A stretch of DNA of 64,000 nt from Bifidobacterium breve (GTDB lineage: Bacteria; Actinomycetota; Thermoleophilia; Solirubrobacterales; Solirubrobacteraceae), in assembly GCA_945878865.1 (NCBI GenBank), contig CAMCUD010000018.1, positions 1 through 64,000 on the forward strand, given 5' to 3'. The notes under the pieces were generated by a model. The model was not told where the DNA came from. It saw only the letters and a program-made list of their open reading frames with translations, and ran no database searches. The position numbers were made by a program, and so were the translations under genes. Positions 12,683-20,723 of this stretch are shown one piece after another. How positions within the stretch are numbered: position 1 is the stretch's first letter; each line of letters opens with the position of its first letter.

Positions 12683-13930
12683 ATGGCCAGGGCGGCAGCA
12701 CACGATGGTGACGCTGCCGCCCCTCGCTCCGGCCGCGGCGCCGCCCCCACGGGCGACGCCGCGGGCGAGGAGTCGCTCGTCGAGCGGCTCCGGCAGCTCC
12801 ACCTGAGGATGGTGGATGCTGTCCTCGGAGGCGAGGGGCTGGCACGCGTGGCCGAACTCGCCTGCGAGGCGGCCGGCGCTCCGGTGGCGATCGTCGTCCC
12901 GCGCCTCGGCGCGGCGGTGCTCGCGCCCGAGGGGGCCGAGGGTGACCTTCCCGGGATCCGCCGGTACGTGGCGGACCGGACAAAGGACCGTCCGACCCAG
13001 GTGCCGGACGGCCTCCTGGCCGAGGTGCCGATCCAGTCCGGCGACGACGTCGTGGGCGCGGTCGTGCTCATCGGCGCCGGCGTCGCGGCGCCCGACGCCG
13101 CGGAGTTCCTGCACCTCGCCGCGGTGGCGTCGCTCACCGAGGTCGCGGTGGAAGAGGCCAAGGAGGAAGTCGAGCAGAACCTGCGCGGCTCGTTCCTGGA
13201 GGACCTGCGCTCACGGCCCGATCTGGAGCCGCGCGAGATCGTGCGCCGGGCGGGACGCCTGGGCTGCGACCTCTCGCGGGGCGCGGTGATCCTCTGCGCC
13301 GAGCTGAAGACCGACCGGCCGCGCCACGTGGTCGCGATGATCTCCGAGGAGTTCCCCGGGGCGCTCGCGCAGCACATGGACGGGCGGGTGTACGCCCTGC
13401 TCCCCGCGGCGGGCGGTGACGACGCGCCGGAGATGACGCTCGACACTGCGCGCAAGCTGGCGACGCGCCTGCAGCGGCACGGCACGGTGGGGCTCTCGTC
13501 CTTCTACGCCGACCCGGGGGAGTTCACGCGCGGCATCCAGGAGGCCGAGCTGGTGCTCGACGTCCTGCGGCAGTCCGACGCGCCGATCGCCGAGGACATC
13601 GGCACCGGGACGTATCGGCTGCTGTTCCGCGTGCTGGCGTCGCATCCCGAGGAGGTGCGGTCGTTCTACGAGGACACGGTGGCGCCGATCGTCAAGTACG
13701 ACGACCAGTACCGGACCGACCTCGTCGGGACGCTCGAGGCGTACCTCGACCAGAACTGCAACATGAACGCGACGGCGGCCGCGATCTACGCGCACCGCCA
13801 CACGGTGGCGTACCGGCTGGACCGGGTGAAGGAGCTCACCGGGCTCGACCCGATGCAGTCCGAGGATCGCGAGCGCCTGGGCCTCGGCCTGAAGGCGTAT
13901 CGCATCATCGCGCCGCGGCTTCCCAAGTAG
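12683..13930 (+). CDS. PucR/CdaR-like transcriptional regulator (GAF-like N-terminus, C-terminal HTH)
   Basis: C-terminal LVGTLEAYLDQNCNMNATAAAIYAHRHTVAYRLDRVKELTGLD is the PucR-type HTH; ATG 12683 directly after glnK. Confidence 0.85.
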   Translation: MARAAAHDGDAAAPRSGRGAAPTGDAAGEESLVERLRQLHLRMVDAVLGGEGLARVAELACEAAGAPVAIVVPRLGAAVLAPEGAEGDLPGIRRYVADRTKDRPTQVPDGLLAEVPIQSGDDVVGAVVLIGAGVAAPDAAEFLHLAAVASLTEVAVEEAKEEVEQNLRGSFLEDLRSRPDLEPREIVRRAGRLGCDLSRGAVILCAELKTDRPRHVVAMISEEFPGALAQHMDGRVYALLPAAGGDDAPEMTLDTARKLATRLQRHGTVGLSSFYADPGEFTRGIQEAELVLDVLRQSDAPIAEDIGTGTYRLLFRVLASHPEEVRSFYEDTVAPIVKYDDQYRTDLVGTLEAYLDQNCNMNATAAAIYAHRHTVAYRLDRVKELTGLDPMQSEDRERLGLGLKAYRIIAPRLPK

Positions 13931-13937
13931 CCATCCG

Positions 13938-13976
13938 CAGCTCTGCCGGCTCTTACCGGCAGAGCTGCCGGTAAGA
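13938..13976. promoter_or_regulatory. Two overlapping, mutually exclusive inverted repeats (terminator/attenuator-like)
   Basis: CAGCTCTGCCGG-CTCTTA-CCGGCAGAGCTG (13938-13967) and TCTTACCGGCAG-AG-CTGCCGGTAAGA (13951-13976) share a middle arm. Confidence 0.55.
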
Positions 13977-14058
13977 TGGGTGTCGGTGATGCGTCGTCGT
14001 CGAAGAATCGCCGAAGGGTTCGAGGGAGAACGGTCCGGCGGGGCGTACGGTTGACGCC

Positions 14059-14751
14059 GTGATCGCTCCGGGGCAGGCACCGACGGTCCTCGTGGTCGAG
14101 GACGAGCCCGCAGTCCGCCGCGCGATCGGTCGTGCGCTCGGCGCCGGCGGCTTCGATCCGGTGCTCGCCGCCACGGCGCACGACGCGCGGGCGGAGATCG
14201 CAGACGCGAGTCCTGACGCACTCGTGCTCGACCGCCTGCTGCCCGACGGCGACGGCGTCGACCTGTGCAACGCGCTGCGCGCCGACGGCTGGCGCGGGCC
14301 GATCCTCATGGTAACCGCGCGCGCCGAGGTCGCCGACCGCATCGCCGGCCTCGAGGCGGGCGCCGACGACTACCTGCCCAAGCCGTTCGACGTCGGCGAG
14401 CTCCTCGCCCGGCTCCGGGCGCTGCTGCGCCGTGTCGAGCCCGAACCGGCGCAGGTCGACGCCGGCGAGCTGCACCTCGACGTCGCCGAGCGCCGGGTCC
14501 GCTGGGCCGGCGGTGAGGCCGTGGAGCTCACCCACACTGAGGCGGCGCTGCTCGCCGTGCTCATGCGCCACGCCGGTCGTGCGCTCTCGCGCCGCGAGCT
14601 GTTCGAGCAAGCGTGGGGCTACGACTACGGGCCAGGAGGGGGCACGCTCGCGGTGTACGTCGGCTATCTCCGCCGCAAGCTCCAGTCTGCGGGCTCCCCA
14701 TCCACCATCCGCAACGTGCGCGGCCACGGCTACGGGCTGGACGTCCCGTGA
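14059..14751 (+). CDS. OmpR/PhoB-family response regulator
   Basis: Receiver (VLVVEDEP, LVLDRLLPDGDG, DDYLPKPFDVGELLARLRALLRR) plus winged helix (ELFEQAWGYDYG, YVGYLRRKL, VRGHGYGL); GTG start. Confidence 0.93.
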   Translation: MIAPGQAPTVLVVEDEPAVRRAIGRALGAGGFDPVLAATAHDARAEIADASPDALVLDRLLPDGDGVDLCNALRADGWRGPILMVTARAEVADRIAGLEAGADDYLPKPFDVGELLARLRALLRRVEPEPAQVDAGELHLDVAERRVRWAGGEAVELTHTEAALLAVLMRHAGRALSRRELFEQAWGYDYGPGGGTLAVYVGYLRRKLQSAGSPSTIRNVRGHGYGLDVP

Positions 14752-16172
14752 GCCTGCGGACACGGGTCGCCGTGCTCGCCGCACTCGCGGTGGGCGTCGT
14801 GGTCGCGGGTGCGACGGCGGCGGTCTACGTCGTCGTCGACCAGCGCCAGCAAGCCCGCGTCGAGAACACGCTCTCCTCCCGGCTCGACCGCTTTCTCGCG
14901 CTCTCCCCCGAGCAGCGTCGGGTGCTCGCCGATCGGCTGGGCGACGCGCTGCCCGACGACGCGGTGGCGCCGCTGCTGAGCGACGCGCAGCTCGTCGGGC
15001 CGGACGGCACGGTGAGCACGCCCGAGGGCGCGCGGAGGATCCCGGTGACCGACGCCGTCCGCGAGCTCGCGGCGGGCCGCAGGACCGACCGCGTGGTCTA
15101 CGAGACGCGGCGCGGCCGCGAGCGAGTCCAGGTGATGGCGGTGCCGGCGGGGGATCTCGGCGCCGCGATGGCCGCCCAGTCGCTGCGCGAGGCCGACGGC
15201 CTGCTGCGCGACGTGCTGATCGCCTGTCTGGCCGTCGGCGCGGTCGGATGCCTCCTGGCCGCGCTCGCCGGATGGCTTGTCGCCCGCCGGGGTCTTGCTC
15301 CCCTCGACGCGTTCGTGCAGCGCCTTGAAGGAATCTCGCGCACGCGCGATCTGGGCCGGCGCCTGCCGGAGGGCGGGCCCGCGGAGATCGACCGGCTCGC
15401 CCATGCGCAGAACGCCACGCTCGCTGCGCTTGAGGCGTCCGTGCGCGCGCAGCGCCAGCTCGTCGCTGACGCATCGCACGAGCTGCGCTCGCCGTTGGCC
15501 GCCATCCAGGCGAACCTTCATCTCCTGCGCGACCGCGATGGCCGCGTCGGACCGGACGCCGACGCGGCCGCGCAGGACGCCGCCGACGAGGGGCGTGCCC
15601 TCGGCGCGCTCGTGGGCGACCTCATCGACCTCGCCCGCGACGGGCGGGACACCCTCGTCGAGGAGGACTTGCGCCTGGACCTCCTCGTCGCCGACCTCGT
15701 CGAGCGCACCCGGCGGGGTGGCGTGGAGATCGGGCTGCGCGCAGCGATGGTGCGCGTCGTCGCCGACGAGGCGGCGATCGCCCGCGCCGTCGGCAACCTC
15801 CTCGACAACGCCATCAAGTACAGCCCTGCGGGAGGACGCGTCGAGGTCGAGGTCGGCGCCGACGGCGTCGTGGCCGTCCGCGACCACGGCCCCGGCATCG
15901 CCAGCGAGGACCTGCCGCGGGTGTTCGACCGGTTCTACCGCTCGCGGCGCACCGCGGAAGTGCGCGGGAGCGGGCTCGGCCTGGCGATCGTGCGCCGGAT
16001 CGCCGACGCGCACGGCGCGGGCGTCGCCGCCGAGAACGCTCCCGGCGGCGGCGCCCGCTTCACCCTCGACCTCTCCGGCCGGGTGGTCGCGCCGTCAGGC
16101 GCTGGGCGCGAACCCGCCCGCCTGCGCTCGGACGCCGGTGCCGGCGGGGACGACGAGCACGGCGTCGCCTGA
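14748..16172 (+). CDS. Sensor histidine kinase
   Basis: HELRSPLAAIQANLHLL H-box, DNAIKYSPAGG N-box, DHGPGIASEDLPRVFDRFYR, GSGLGLAIVRRIADAHG; GTG 14748 overlaps the RR stop. Confidence 0.93.
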   Translation: MSLRTRVAVLAALAVGVVVAGATAAVYVVVDQRQQARVENTLSSRLDRFLALSPEQRRVLADRLGDALPDDAVAPLLSDAQLVGPDGTVSTPEGARRIPVTDAVRELAAGRRTDRVVYETRRGRERVQVMAVPAGDLGAAMAAQSLREADGLLRDVLIACLAVGAVGCLLAALAGWLVARRGLAPLDAFVQRLEGISRTRDLGRRLPEGGPAEIDRLAHAQNATLAALEASVRAQRQLVADASHELRSPLAAIQANLHLLRDRDGRVGPDADAAAQDAADEGRALGALVGDLIDLARDGRDTLVEEDLRLDLLVADLVERTRRGGVEIGLRAAMVRVVADEAAIARAVGNLLDNAIKYSPAGGRVEVEVGADGVVAVRDHGPGIASEDLPRVFDRFYRSRRTAEVRGSGLGLAIVRRIADAHGAGVAAENAPGGGARFTLDLSGRVVAPSGAGREPARLRSDAGAGGDDEHGVA

Positions 16173-17957
16173 CGCGTCAGTCGCGGCGGCATCGCCGCCG
16201 TCGGTGGCGGTGACGGTGGCCGCCTGCACAGGACGGCGCTCGGCGTCCTCGGCGACCTGGGTGTCGACGTGCACGCGGACACGCTCCCGCCCGTCACCCA
16301 GCGCGGTGCGTTCGGTCACGTCGGCACGCAGGCGCGGCTGCGCACGGCCTGGGCAGTCGGCCTGCTGCGGCACCCCGCTGCGGGTCACGCCGTCGTAGGT
16401 GCTCTTCACCGTGCCGCGCCACGCGTTCTGGGCGCCGATGGTGATGTCCCCGGTCATCGAGCCCTTGTGCGCCCCGGTCATCTTGAGGTTCGCCCGCCAG
16501 CGGCTCTGGAACAGCGGGTTCGTGACGTCGATCCGCTCGGTGCCGGTGAGGAAGGTCTTGCCGTCCTCGGAGTAGCGGTTGTAGTCGACCCTCCAGGCGC
16601 CGCCGAAGTAGACGCCGAGGTACGTCGCGGCGATGTATCCGCCGCCCTTGCCGTAGATCCGCCGGCCGAGGACCTGGCGCCCCGTGATCCCGTGGTACTG
16701 CGAGGCCGGGATCGTGACCTGCTCAAAGGCGGTGTCGGCGAGGTGGCGCGGCTCGAGCGGCGGCGCCGCACCGACGGCGGGCAGCGAGACGATCCGGATC
16801 CGCGACTCCGGCGTCCCGGTGCGTTCCTCGGTCACCACGGCGCGGTTGCCGCCAGGCAGCCAGTCCCACTCCTCGATGCGCCAGCCCTCCTCGAGGATCA
16901 CGGGCTGGCCGGCGTAGCCGCCGAGCGTCTGGCCGGACCGCTGGTCCATGAGCCACCCCTCGTTCATGCACTCGCGGTTGTTCCACAGGGAGACGCGGCC
17001 CATCTGCGCGAACGCGGCGTTGTCGATGAGCGACGGGCGCGGGAGCTGCGTGAACACGTCCATCCGATCGAGGCCGCGGGCGGATGAGTAGTACAGCCAG
17101 CGCCCGTCGTCGGCGAAGCGGCCGACCTCGTTGTAGTCCATGTCCGTCGTGACCTGGCGTCGCTCGCCGGTCTGCAGGTCGAGGAGGTAGACGTCGTAGT
17201 TCAGCCCGGTTGTCGTGGTCTGGTACTTGAGGTAGCGGTTGCCGCCGACGAACTCCGTGCCCTCGTACCACCGGCCGCCCGCGACCCAGTCGTTGATGTC
17301 CGAGGTCAGCCGGTACCGCGGGTTGACGATCCGCTGCTCGGTGACGTGGTAGGCGCCGTCGCGGCGGACGAGCCGGCCGACACTGACGTGCGGGCCGTCC
17401 TCGACCCGGACCTCGTTCCAGCCGACGTACTCGCCGAAGTCGTCGGGCTTGGCCTCGCGGTTCTGCGCGCCCTTGGCGAGCCCGTCGCGCGGGAAGCGGA
17501 CCTTCAGCACCTGCTTCTGCGCACAGTCGTAGACGCTCGGCGCGCACTCGAGGATCCGCCACGAGAAGTCGCCCGTCCCGCCGCTGAGCGGGTTGCCGTT
17601 CGCCGAGGCACCGGCGGTGTTCGCGAACCACAGCCGCGTGCCGTCGCCGAAGATGCGGGCCTTCTGGGCGGTCTTGGCGACCCCGCAGGTGACGCAGCGA
17701 TAGCCCGAGCCGTCGAGGGCGCTGACGGCGACCTGCTCGGCGCCGCCGGTCACGACGGAGAAGTACAGGTGGGCGCCGTCCGGGGCGACCTTCGGCGCGG
17801 GGCGTGTGGGGGACAGCGTCACGCCATCGGGCAGCTGGAGGTGGATCTCCTCGTCGACGTGCAGCGCCTGCAGGGGCGGCGTCGCCGCCGCGGGGGTCGC
17901 ACCCGCGGCGGCGAGCACCGCGGCGGCGGTGAGCATGACGGCTCGGGGAACACGCAT
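16095..17957 (-). CDS. Secreted beta-propeller-like protein with C-terminal Ig/CarboxypepD-like segment, CVTCG-motif family
   Basis: Signal peptide MRVPRAVMLTAAAVLAAAGATPAAA, GYRCVTCGVAKTAQKARIFGDG, SSARGLDRMDVFTQLPRP; ATG 17957 with GGAG RBS. Paralogue of 18087-19973. Confidence 0.75.
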   Translation of the reverse strand: MRVPRAVMLTAAAVLAAAGATPAAATPPLQALHVDEEIHLQLPDGVTLSPTRPAPKVAPDGAHLYFSVVTGGAEQVAVSALDGSGYRCVTCGVAKTAQKARIFGDGTRLWFANTAGASANGNPLSGGTGDFSWRILECAPSVYDCAQKQVLKVRFPRDGLAKGAQNREAKPDDFGEYVGWNEVRVEDGPHVSVGRLVRRDGAYHVTEQRIVNPRYRLTSDINDWVAGGRWYEGTEFVGGNRYLKYQTTTTGLNYDVYLLDLQTGERRQVTTDMDYNEVGRFADDGRWLYYSSARGLDRMDVFTQLPRPSLIDNAAFAQMGRVSLWNNRECMNEGWLMDQRSGQTLGGYAGQPVILEEGWRIEEWDWLPGGNRAVVTEERTGTPESRIRIVSLPAVGAAPPLEPRHLADTAFEQVTIPASQYHGITGRQVLGRRIYGKGGGYIAATYLGVYFGGAWRVDYNRYSEDGKTFLTGTERIDVTNPLFQSRWRANLKMTGAHKGSMTGDITIGAQNAWRGTVKSTYDGVTRSGVPQQADCPGRAQPRLRADVTERTALGDGRERVRVHVDTQVAEDAERRPVQAATVTATDGGDAAATDASGDAVLVVPAGTGVRAQAGGFAPSA

Positions 17958-18014
17958 CGTTCGTCTCCTTCGCTGATGGGGACCCGAACGTAGGCTCGAT
18001 CGCGCCCGCCAGGC

Positions 18015-18052
18015 CAAGAGGACGTCAAGAGGCCGCTCTTGCACGGCTCTTG
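18015..18052. promoter_or_regulatory. Symmetric array: CAAGAG x2 (11-bp period) facing CTCTTG x2 (11-bp period), putative OmpR-family operator
   Basis: CAAGAG at 18015 and 18026; CTCTTG at 18036 and 18047; exact dyad centre 18033.5, in the divergent intergenic region. Confidence 0.65.
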
Positions 18053-18086
18053 ACCTGGGCGCCCGCGGCGGTGAGACGCTCGGCAC

Positions 18087-19973
18087 ATGTCCCGGAACCC
18101 ACGTCTCCACGCCCTGGCAGGGGTCGCCATCACCGTACTCGTCGCCGCCGGCTCACCCACGGGGGCGGCGGGCGCGCCGCCGCCGCTCGAGCCGATCGAG
18201 GTCGAGCGCACACTCCCGACTCCCGCGGGCATCACCCTGCGGAGCGCCACGCTCGCCCCAGGCGATCGGTCGGCGGTCGTCGGCGGCGAGGTCGACGGCG
18301 CGGAGCAGGTCGGTGTCATGGGTCTCGACGGCGAGGGCTTCCGCTGCGTGACCTGCGGCCTGGCCAAGCAGGCCCTGGACCCTGACCCGTTCGACGACGG
18401 GCGCCGCATCCTGCTCACCGGCGTGCAGCCCTCGAAGCTCGATCAGGTCCTGCAGGGTCTCGGCGGCGGGGCCGGGCTAGGGGACCTCCAGTTCAGCGTG
18501 CTGGAGTGCGCGCCCTCGATCGAGGACTGCTCCGACCGTCGCATCGTCCCGCTGGACTTTCCGCGTGACGGCCTCGCCGAAGGGGCGCAGGTCCGCGAGG
18601 TCTCCGCCTCGCCGGACGGCACGCTCATCAAGTGGAACGAGGTGCTGGCAACCTCGGGCGAGCGGATGGTCATCGGCCGGCTCGTGCGCACTGCGAAGGG
18701 CTACGAGGCCCGAGATCCGGTGATCCTCAACGAGCCGTTCACCGTGGACAACCGCACGGAGAGCTGGCAGGCCGCCGGCAGGTTCTTCGAGTCCGGTGGG
18801 GGCGCGAGCGGGCGGAGCTTCTGGGACGGCGGCCGGACGCTGAAGTACAACGCGACGAGCACCGCGCTGAACTACGACCTCTACGAGCTCGACCTCCTCA
18901 CCGGGGCGCGCACCCGCCGCACCACGGACCTCGACTACAACGAGATGTCCGACGCCTCACCGGACGGGCGCTGGCTCTCCTACGCGTCTGCGCGCGGGCT
19001 GGACCGCATGGACGTCTTCACGCAGCTCGAGCGCCCGCCGTTCCTCGACGCCGTGACCTTCGGTGCGCTCGGCCGCATCTCGCTCTTCTCCAACCGGCGG
19101 TGCATGAACGAGCGCTGGCTCATGGACCGCGAGGGCCAGAGGGGAACCTACGGCGGTCAGCCCGTGGTGACCGAGGACGGCTGGGTCATCCGCGGCTGGC
19201 GCTGGTTCGAGGACGGCACGCGTGCCCTGATCACCGAGGAGCGCATCCCCAACGAGCCGGAGCCCAGGGACCCGGCGGCGCGCAAGCGACTGCGGGTCAT
19301 CCGCTTTCCCGAGCGCACGCCGACCGCCCCCGTCGCTCCCGTGCACATCGACGCTGCCGACCTGCGCCGGATCGGGGCGCCGTACACGAGCTACCACAGC
19401 ATGGCCGACCGGCGGGTGCTCGGCCGGGTGGTCCGCGGCAAGACGTCGGGGACCGCGACGCTCACCTACCTGGGCAGCTTCACCGCGGGGACGTGGCGCG
19501 TGACGTACGCGAACTACAGCGATGACGGGCGGTCGTTCGTCACCGGCACCGAGTCCTTCGCTTCGGCTGTGCCGAACCTGCTGAGCACGTGGAGCGCGGC
19601 GCTCGTCGTCCGCGGGGAGCACCACGGCCACCTGCGCGGCACGGTGACGCTGCTGCCCGGGTCGAAGTTTCGCGCCTCGGTCGACAGCGTCGTCGACGGG
19701 CAGCGGTTCGACCGCGTGCCGGTCCAGGCCGATTGCCCGGGCGTCCGTCAGGCGCCCCTGGCCGTCGAGCGCCTCGATGGCGGGCGCTACCGGGTCACCG
19801 CGCGGGTTCCCGAGGATCCCGTGGCGCGGCCGGTGCGCGGCGCGACCGTCGAGGCGGGCGACGCGCGCGCGACGACGGATGCCGACGGCGTCGCCGCGCT
19901 CGCTGTGCCGCCTGCTGCGGCGACGGTGCGCGCTTCGGCGGGCGGGTTCCGCCCGGCCGAGGGGCCGGCGTGA
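18087..19973 (+). CDS. Secreted beta-propeller-like protein, CVTCG-motif family (paralogue of 16095-17957)
   Basis: Signal peptide, GFRCVTCGLAKQALDPDPFDDG, DYNEMSDASPDGRWLSYASARGLDRMDVFTQLERP, NRRCMNERWLMD. Confidence 0.75.
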   Translation: MSRNPRLHALAGVAITVLVAAGSPTGAAGAPPPLEPIEVERTLPTPAGITLRSATLAPGDRSAVVGGEVDGAEQVGVMGLDGEGFRCVTCGLAKQALDPDPFDDGRRILLTGVQPSKLDQVLQGLGGGAGLGDLQFSVLECAPSIEDCSDRRIVPLDFPRDGLAEGAQVREVSASPDGTLIKWNEVLATSGERMVIGRLVRTAKGYEARDPVILNEPFTVDNRTESWQAAGRFFESGGGASGRSFWDGGRTLKYNATSTALNYDLYELDLLTGARTRRTTDLDYNEMSDASPDGRWLSYASARGLDRMDVFTQLERPPFLDAVTFGALGRISLFSNRRCMNERWLMDREGQRGTYGGQPVVTEDGWVIRGWRWFEDGTRALITEERIPNEPEPRDPAARKRLRVIRFPERTPTAPVAPVHIDAADLRRIGAPYTSYHSMADRRVLGRVVRGKTSGTATLTYLGSFTAGTWRVTYANYSDDGRSFVTGTESFASAVPNLLSTWSAALVVRGEHHGHLRGTVTLLPGSKFRASVDSVVDGQRFDRVPVQADCPGVRQAPLAVERLDGGRYRVTARVPEDPVARPVRGATVEAGDARATTDADGVAALAVPPAAATVRASAGGFRPAEGPA

Positions 19974-20051: not shown

Positions 20052-20723
20052 ATGAGCCCAGCAACCTCCACGTCCAAGCCCCGCCGCCGCACTCAGGCGG
20101 AGCGCCGCGCCGCGACCCGGGCGCTGCTGCTCGACGCGACGATCGACTGCCTGATCGACTACGGGTACAACGGCGTGACCACAACCCGCGTCGTGGAGCG
20201 CGCGGGCGTCTCACGTGGCGCCCAGGTCCACCACTTCCCGACCAAGGCGATCCTGGTGTCCGAGGCGATGGTCCATCTCGCCGACCGGCGCAGCGCTGAC
20301 CTGGAGCGGCAGGCGGAGCAGCTCCCGCGCGGGAAGAAACGCCCGGCGGCGGCGCTCGACCTTCTGTGGGCGTCGCATCGCGGGCCTCTCTTCGAGGCGG
20401 CGATGGAGCTGTGGGTTGCGGCGCGGACCGACGATGAGCTCCGCGAGCGTCTGGTTCCCGTGGAGCTCCAGCTGGCACGCAGGACCTGGGAGCTGTGCCG
20501 GGCGCTGTTCGGTGACTACGCCAAGGCCAAGACGTTCCCGGCGAGCGTGGAGGTCGCGCTCGCGTCGATGCAGGGGCTCGCCGTGCTGGCGCTGCCCATG
20601 CGCGACGACGGCGGTGCGCTGACCGGCGAGGGCCAGACGCTGGATCAGCTCTGGCGGGCGTGCCGCAAGCGTCTGCTCGTGCTCTTCGACGAGCCCGCAC
20701 CCCCGAAGGGCGCCCGCGGCTGA
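20052..20723 (+). CDS. TetR/AcrR family regulator
   Basis: [49 protein letters not shown]; related to 44931-45584. Confidence 0.93.
   Translation: MSPATSTSKPRRRTQAERRAATRALLLDATIDCLIDYGYNGVTTTRVVERAGVSRGAQVHHFPTKAILVSEAMVHLADRRSADLERQAEQLPRGKKRPAAALDLLWASHRGPLFEAAMELWVAARTDDELRERLVPVELQLARRTWELCRALFGDYAKAKTFPASVEVALASMQGLAVLALPMRDDGGALTGEGQTLDQLWRACRKRLLVLFDEPAPPKGARG

What the first reader, a model, noticed from the sequence alone, without database searches (positions are those of the whole stretch)
18015..18052. Mirror-symmetric pair of 11-bp-period direct repeats between divergent paralogues
CAAGAG-N5-CAAGAG and CTCTTG-N5-CTCTTG are exact and share one dyad centre (18033.5). Direct repeats with 11-bp period are the known recognition geometry of OmpR/PhoB response regulators, and an OmpR-type TCS is encoded 2 kb upstream (14059-16172). 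This suggests one RR dimer per promoter, controlling both secreted proteins.
Basis: partly seen in the sequence, partly recalled or inferred. Interest (0 to 1): 0.62.

Follow-up and report, generated by a model that had tools for sequence, protein, structure and literature searches.

The report
Mirrored response-regulator sites between divergent genes
Between two back-to-back genes for related secreted proteins lies a mirror-image pair of repeats that is very probably the DNA docking site of the neighbouring two-component regulator, a tidy new example of a well-known kind of bacterial gene switch.

Summary
CAAGAG-N5-CAAGAG (18015-18031) and CTCTTG-N5-CTCTTG (18036-18052) are exact, share the dyad centre 18033.5, and are the only two exact copies in the 4.96-Mb genome. 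New support comes from relatives. In Patulibacter medicamentivorans the orthologous kinase-regulator pair (RR 62% identical, near-identical recognition helix) also sits tail-to-tail with a copy of the secreted-protein gene. The only two near-copies (at most 2 mismatches) in that 20-kb region lie in the regulator's own promoter and in the promoter of the secreted-protein operon. In Streptosporangiales, diverged RRs of the same module have another 11-bp-period repeat (TGTGAGTTCC) in these promoters, exactly 26 bp before the RR start codon in all three species. Geometry remains open: the four half-sites are also in helical phase (spacing 11-10-11) and the inner pair forms a 6-4-6 inverted repeat as in AgrR/CopR boxes, so one joint tetramer is possible instead of two independent dimers. 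A TetR regulator (20052-20723) is a weaker rival. No binding data exist. It is a new member of a known kind.

The parts
18015..18031 (-). direct repeat CTCTTG-N5-CTCTTG read towards secA (CAAGAGGACGTCAAGAG on +); predicted RR site of the secA promoter
   Evidence: exact, one of only two exact copies in the genome
18036..18052 (+). direct repeat CTCTTG-N5-CTCTTG read towards secB; predicted RR site of the secB promoter
18026..18041 (.). inner 6-4-6 inverted repeat CAAGAG-GCCG-CTCTTG (same geometry as an AgrR/CopR box)
   Evidence: geometry compared with PMC7380067
18009..18058 (.). whole imperfect palindrome, 23-nt arms, extending the similarity to CCTGG on both outer flanks
18050..18055 (+). 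-35-like TTGACC overlapping the outer half-site, towards secB; -10 element weak (TGAGAC 18072-18077)
   Evidence: read from sequence; inference
18012..18017 (-). -35-like TTGGCC overlapping the outer half-site, towards secA; TANNNT-type -10 TACGTT at 17992-17987, spacing 19
   Evidence: read from sequence; inference
14059..14751 (+). OmpR/PhoB-family response regulator (receiver + winged helix), predicted binder
   Evidence: Pfam Response_reg 2.7e-24 and Trans_reg_C 5.2e-22; PDB PrrA 2.7e-47
14748..16172 (+). sensor histidine kinase (HAMP, HisKA, HATPase_c)
14002..14018 (-). degenerate 11-bp-period repeat (GAAGAA-N5-GAAGGG on +, 4 mismatches in 12) 40 bp upstream of the RR start; candidate autoregulatory site, same orientation as and near the position of the Patulibacter RR-promoter site
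   Evidence: weak on its own
16095..17957 (-). secA: predicted secreted TolB-like beta-propeller protein
   Evidence: TIGR02800 local match; sister of Patulibacter sec in the tree
18087..19973 (+). secB: divergent paralogue with a C-terminal carboxypeptidase-regulatory-like domain (below Pfam's cut-off)
20052..20723 (+). TetR-family regulator downstream of secB (rival binder)
   Evidence: TetR_N 5.9e-11; 44% identical TetR near the TCS in two mycobacterium-like loci

Best explanation
The 38-bp element is a composite operator for the OmpR/PhoB-type response regulator encoded at 14059-14751. Each CTCTTG-N5-CTCTTG direct repeat is read head-to-tail by two RR DNA-binding domains, one repeat per divergent promoter, with the outer half-site overlapping a -35-like hexamer. 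When the kinase (14748-16172) is stimulated, phosphorylated RR occupies both repeats and switches secA and secB together, most likely by activation from the -35 position. Shown: the repeats, their uniqueness, the gene context, and the recurrence of the repeats in the expected promoters of relatives. Inferred: binding, phosphorylation dependence, sign of regulation and signal.
For: Exact double repeat unique in the genome. A complete OmpR-type RR and HK lie nearby. In Patulibacter medicamentivorans (L023/L072, G084) the RR (62%) and HK (47%) orthologues are tail-to-tail with the secA orthologue. The predicted DNA-contacting helix region is nearly identical: GGTLAVYVGYLRRKL against GGTLSVYVGYVRRKL. 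The only two matches with 2 mismatches or fewer in that 20-kb locus are CAAGAGGTTCATGAGAG, 38 bp before the RR start, and CTCTTGGATGGATCTCG, 27 bp before the first gene of the secreted-protein operon. With 77 such matches in 5.1 Mb, about 0.003 are expected in these two regions. The second clade agrees: Microbispora and Planomonospora have an RR-HK pair divergent from sec; Actinomadura has a divergent sec pair with an RR 82% identical to Microbispora's about 14 kb away. Their sec intergenics share a block with 11-bp period, TGNGAGTTCCG-TGTGAG. A profile from these sites finds untrained sites 26 bp before the RR start in Actinomadura (rank 2 in 18 kb) and Planomonospora (rank 2 in 14 kb), the same 26-bp gap as in Microbispora. 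Direct repeats of about 11 bp are documented for this family (PhoP, 7-bp repeats with 4-bp spacer, abstract of PMC4832192; MtrA 8-3-8, cited in PMC7380067).
Against: No binding or expression data. The window's own RR promoter has only a degenerate repeat (4 mismatches). Only one other genome carries the CTCTTG version, so that footprint rests on two loci. The Patulibacter sites differ by 2 of 12 bases, and the RR-promoter copy is in the opposite orientation relative to its gene. Promoter elements of secB are weak. Seven-of-eight matches at 11-bp period arise in 4-5% of shuffles of regions this size, so single cases of loose repeats prove little.
Confidence: 0.75

Rival explanations
1. The same RR binds, but as one joint assembly: the inner 6-4-6 inverted repeat is the core box (as for AgrR, CopR, PcoR) and the outer half-sites are flanking in-phase repeats, so a symmetric dimer or tetramer couples both promoters. 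(This is a variant of the best explanation, not exclusive of RR binding.)
For: CAAGAG-N4-CTCTTG is exactly 16 bp, 6-4-6; half-site spacing 11-10-11 keeps all four on one face; AgrR has a 6-4-6 core plus in-phase direct repeats, and binds control regions of divergent operons (PMC7380067); the HK's best NCBIfam match is the heavy-metal kinase family CztS/SilS/CopS, below its cut-off.
Against: The Patulibacter operon promoter and RR promoter have the direct repeat without a matching inverted half-site; the RR is closer to PhoB/MtrA models than to the CopR model.
Confidence: 0.25
2. The palindrome is the operator of the TetR-family protein at 20052-20723, which represses secA and secB as a pair of dimers.
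For: TetR is encoded 78 bp after secB on the same strand; a 44%-identical TetR sits near the TCS and sec genes in two mycobacterium-like loci (L100, L106); TetR operators are usually palindromic (general knowledge).
Against: No TetR relative lies near the Patulibacter locus, which still has the repeats; of 19 other TetR-relative loci in the family (about 1.5 kb flanks), none has a CAAGAG-N4-CTCTTG match with 2 mismatches or fewer, and only two have a 2-mismatch direct-repeat match; the TetR upstream regions in L100 and L106 lack the motif; the repeats persist in Patulibacter as direct, not inverted, repeats.
Confidence: 0.12
3. The symmetry is a relic of an inverted duplication of a gene with its promoter, not a selected double operator.
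For: The flanking genes are paralogues in mirror orientation, and similarity extends to CCTGG beyond the repeats.
Against: secA groups with Patulibacter sec and secB does not; the proteins are 44% identical, so unselected DNA would have lost exact hexamers; the rest of the intergenic region is not symmetric.
Confidence: 0.05

Closest known systems
OmpR/PhoB-family direct-repeat operators (PhoP of M. tuberculosis, PmrA boxes, PhoB, MtrA)
   Same: two half-sites in tandem with about 11-bp period, near the -35 region, close to an OmpR-type TCS
   Different: half-site CTCTTG is not that of any named regulator I know (from memory, not searched exhaustively); two repeats face each other 4 bp apart between divergent paralogues
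AgrR/CopR/PcoR boxes (6-4-6 inverted repeat with in-phase flanking half-sites)
   Same: the inner 16 bp here have exactly the 6-4-6 geometry with flanking in-phase direct repeats
   Different: different half-site; in the Patulibacter relative only direct repeats remain; no metal-resistance genes were identified among the genes examined around the site

Membership tests
OmpR/PhoB response-regulator operator | two or more tandem half-sites with 10-11-bp period | tested here: met
   exact 11-bp period, twice
OmpR/PhoB response-regulator operator | cognate RR has receiver plus winged-helix Trans_reg_C domain | tested here: met
OmpR/PhoB response-regulator operator | motif follows the RR orthologue in other genomes | tested here: met
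   Patulibacter; a different half-site with the same period in the Streptosporangiales clade
OmpR/PhoB response-regulator operator | autoregulation site in the RR's own promoter (common, not obligatory) | tested here: inconclusive
   good in Patulibacter and three Streptosporangiales; only a degenerate repeat in the window
OmpR/PhoB response-regulator operator | phosphorylation-dependent binding in vitro | not testable with these tools
   needs EMSA or footprinting
AgrR/CopR-type inverted-repeat box | 6-4-6 inverted repeat | tested here: inconclusive
   present in the window (18026-18041), absent from both Patulibacter promoters
TetR operator | palindrome conserved near TetR relatives | tested here: not met
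   no inverted-repeat match near 19 other TetR-relative loci; TetR absent from the Patulibacter locus

The most novel reading that the evidence does not exclude
A single four-subunit RR assembly spans the 38-bp element, combining two head-to-tail pairs with a head-to-head inner contact, so that two divergent paralogous promoters fire as one unit; a hybrid of the PhoB-type and AgrR-type recognition modes.
Probability: 0.2. Interest if true: 0.45.

Novelty: new member of a known kind. Interest (0 to 1): 0.3.

Why it matters
It gives a concrete operator and a small, apparently dedicated regulon for an uncharacterised two-component system that travels with an uncharacterised family of secreted propeller-like proteins in Solirubrobacterales, Streptosporangiales and mycobacterium-like genomes. 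It makes the signal and function of that family testable with one simple reporter. It does not change the general picture of how OmpR-type regulators work.

Tried and rejected
Triple and quadruple CTCTTG-like repeats elsewhere in the Patulibacter genome (C35, C320) were checked as possible regulon members and rejected: one lies at the start of a signal-peptide coding region, the other in an intergenic region beside a different (HxlR-like, by eye) regulator gene with its own palindrome. Window and Patulibacter RR promoters show no significant ungapped similarity as wholes. More distant sec homologues of the order have no CTCTTG pair in the stretches inspected (those loci are in contig orientation, so for minus-strand genes the printed stretch is not the promoter). 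The sec family is rare (15 of 201 genomes of the order at E 1e-10, 13 of 399 of the class at E 1e-40), so deeper footprinting of the CTCTTG version was not possible. The structure prediction for secB was mediocre (pLDDT 63) and fold hits are mostly generic propeller-containing proteins at low TM-scores, including TolB.

Full report
Observation. The sequence at 18015-18052 is CAAGAG-GACGT-CAAGAG-GCCG-CTCTTG-CACGG-CTCTTG. Both direct repeats are exact with period 11 and share one dyad centre at 18033.5. The element is the core of a 23-nt imperfect inverted repeat, 18009-18058. It is the only mirror-symmetric hexamer pair of its kind in the window, and none appeared in 1.9 Mb of simulated sequence or in about 0.7 Mb of other loci. 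In the 4.96-Mb genome the repeat CTCTTG-N5-CTCTTG occurs exactly twice, both times here. The two one-mismatch copies lie inside long reading frames, and 71 copies have at most two mismatches.

Context. The RR (14059-14751) has the receiver and Trans_reg_C domains of the OmpR/PhoB family, and the kinase (14748-16172) has HAMP, HisKA and HATPase_c (the HAMP match is slightly below Pfam's cut-off). The RR matches PhoB and MtrA models best, though below their cut-offs, and PrrA among solved structures. The two flanking genes encode paralogous proteins, 44% identical, with signal-peptide-like N-termini (read by eye) and, in secA, a local TolB-propeller match. secA is convergent with the TCS. A TetR gene follows secB.

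Relatives, same RR type. The only other genome found with the same TCS and secreted-protein arrangement is Patulibacter medicamentivorans I11. There the RR is 62% and the kinase 47% identical, and secA's orthologue (53% identical, sister in the tree) is the third gene of an operon behind a putative ABC permease and ATPase. The region of the RR that should contact DNA is nearly identical to the window's. Scanning the 20-kb locus for the repeat gives two matches with at most two mismatches. CAAGAG-GTTCA-TGAGAG lies 38 bp before the RR start, and CTCTTG-GATGG-ATCTCG lies 27 bp before the operon start. From the genome-wide density of 77 per 5.1 Mb, about 0.003 such matches are expected in these two regions; the two-mismatch threshold was not fixed beforehand.

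Relatives, second clade. Microbispora and Planomonospora carry an RR-kinase pair divergent from a secreted-protein gene. Actinomadura carries two divergent secreted paralogues, as in the window, and an RR 82% identical to that of Microbispora about 14 kb away on the same contig. The best common block of the three intergenic regions scores 31 against a maximum of 28 in 60 shuffles and reads TGNGAGTTCCG-TGTGAG, again an 11-bp-period repeat. A half-site profile from those three places finds further sites that were not used for training, in the RR promoters of Actinomadura and Planomonospora (second-best score in 18 kb and 14 kb). In all three species the RR-side site ends exactly 26 bp before the RR start codon, in the same orientation (in Microbispora that site is one of the three training sites). 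The module therefore repeatedly pairs its RR with 11-bp-period repeats in the RR and secreted-protein promoters, the half-site sequence changing with the RR clade. That is the pattern expected of an RR and its operators.

Mechanism. The most likely reading is one direct repeat per promoter, bound head-to-tail by two RR DNA-binding domains, with the outer half-site overlapping a -35-like TTGRCC in both directions. Activation from the -35 position is the usual outcome for this geometry (established knowledge of PhoB-type activators), but repression cannot be excluded, and secB lacks a clear -10. The window's own RR promoter holds only a degenerate repeat (GAAGAA-N5-GAAGGG, 14002-14018), at nearly the same distance and in the same orientation as the Patulibacter one. 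This is suggestive only.

Rivals. The inner half-sites form a 6-4-6 inverted repeat with in-phase flanking repeats, the architecture measured for AgrR of Cupriavidus metallidurans (PMC7380067). In that reading a joint complex controls both promoters. The Patulibacter promoters, which have only the direct repeat, argue for the direct repeat as the basic unit but do not exclude cooperation across the dyad here. The TetR protein is a less likely binder. It is absent from the Patulibacter locus, and none of 19 other TetR-relative loci shows a matching inverted repeat, although a 44%-identical TetR does accompany the module in two mycobacterium-like loci. A relic of inverted duplication is unlikely because the two paralogues separate early in the tree.

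Verdict. It is a well-formed new member of a known class of operators. Interest is modest and lies mainly in giving a handle on an uncharacterised secreted-protein and two-component module.

Noticed in passing
window 16095-19973; L069, L070, L071, L023, L100, L106: An uncharacterised family of secreted TolB-like propeller proteins recurs with OmpR-type two-component systems across Solirubrobacterales, Streptosporangiales and mycobacterium-like genomes; no curated family was found to cover the full length.
   Followed up: partly
L134:5225-5257: Three half-sites at 11-bp period overlap the end of the Actinomadura kinase gene, about 46 bp before a gene for a putative DUF2993-like lipoprotein that precedes a putative MmpL/RND-like transporter gene (names by eye, not searched); a possible further target of that RR.
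   Followed up: partly
L100:11160-14080, L106:6628-8115: A TetR regulator 44% identical to the window's (20052-20723) sits near the two-component system in mycobacterium-like genomes, suggesting it belongs to the same module.
   Followed up: partly
G084:C320:21184-21211 (L108:7184-7211): CTCATG-N5-CTCTTG-N5-CTCAAG array between an HxlR-like regulator and an alpha/beta-hydrolase gene (names by eye); looks like that regulator's own palindromic site.
   Followed up: partly
window 13940-13975: Strong hairpin CTCTGCCGG-CTCTTA-CCGGCAGAG between the gene ending at 13930 and the RR gene, probably a terminator.
   Followed up: no
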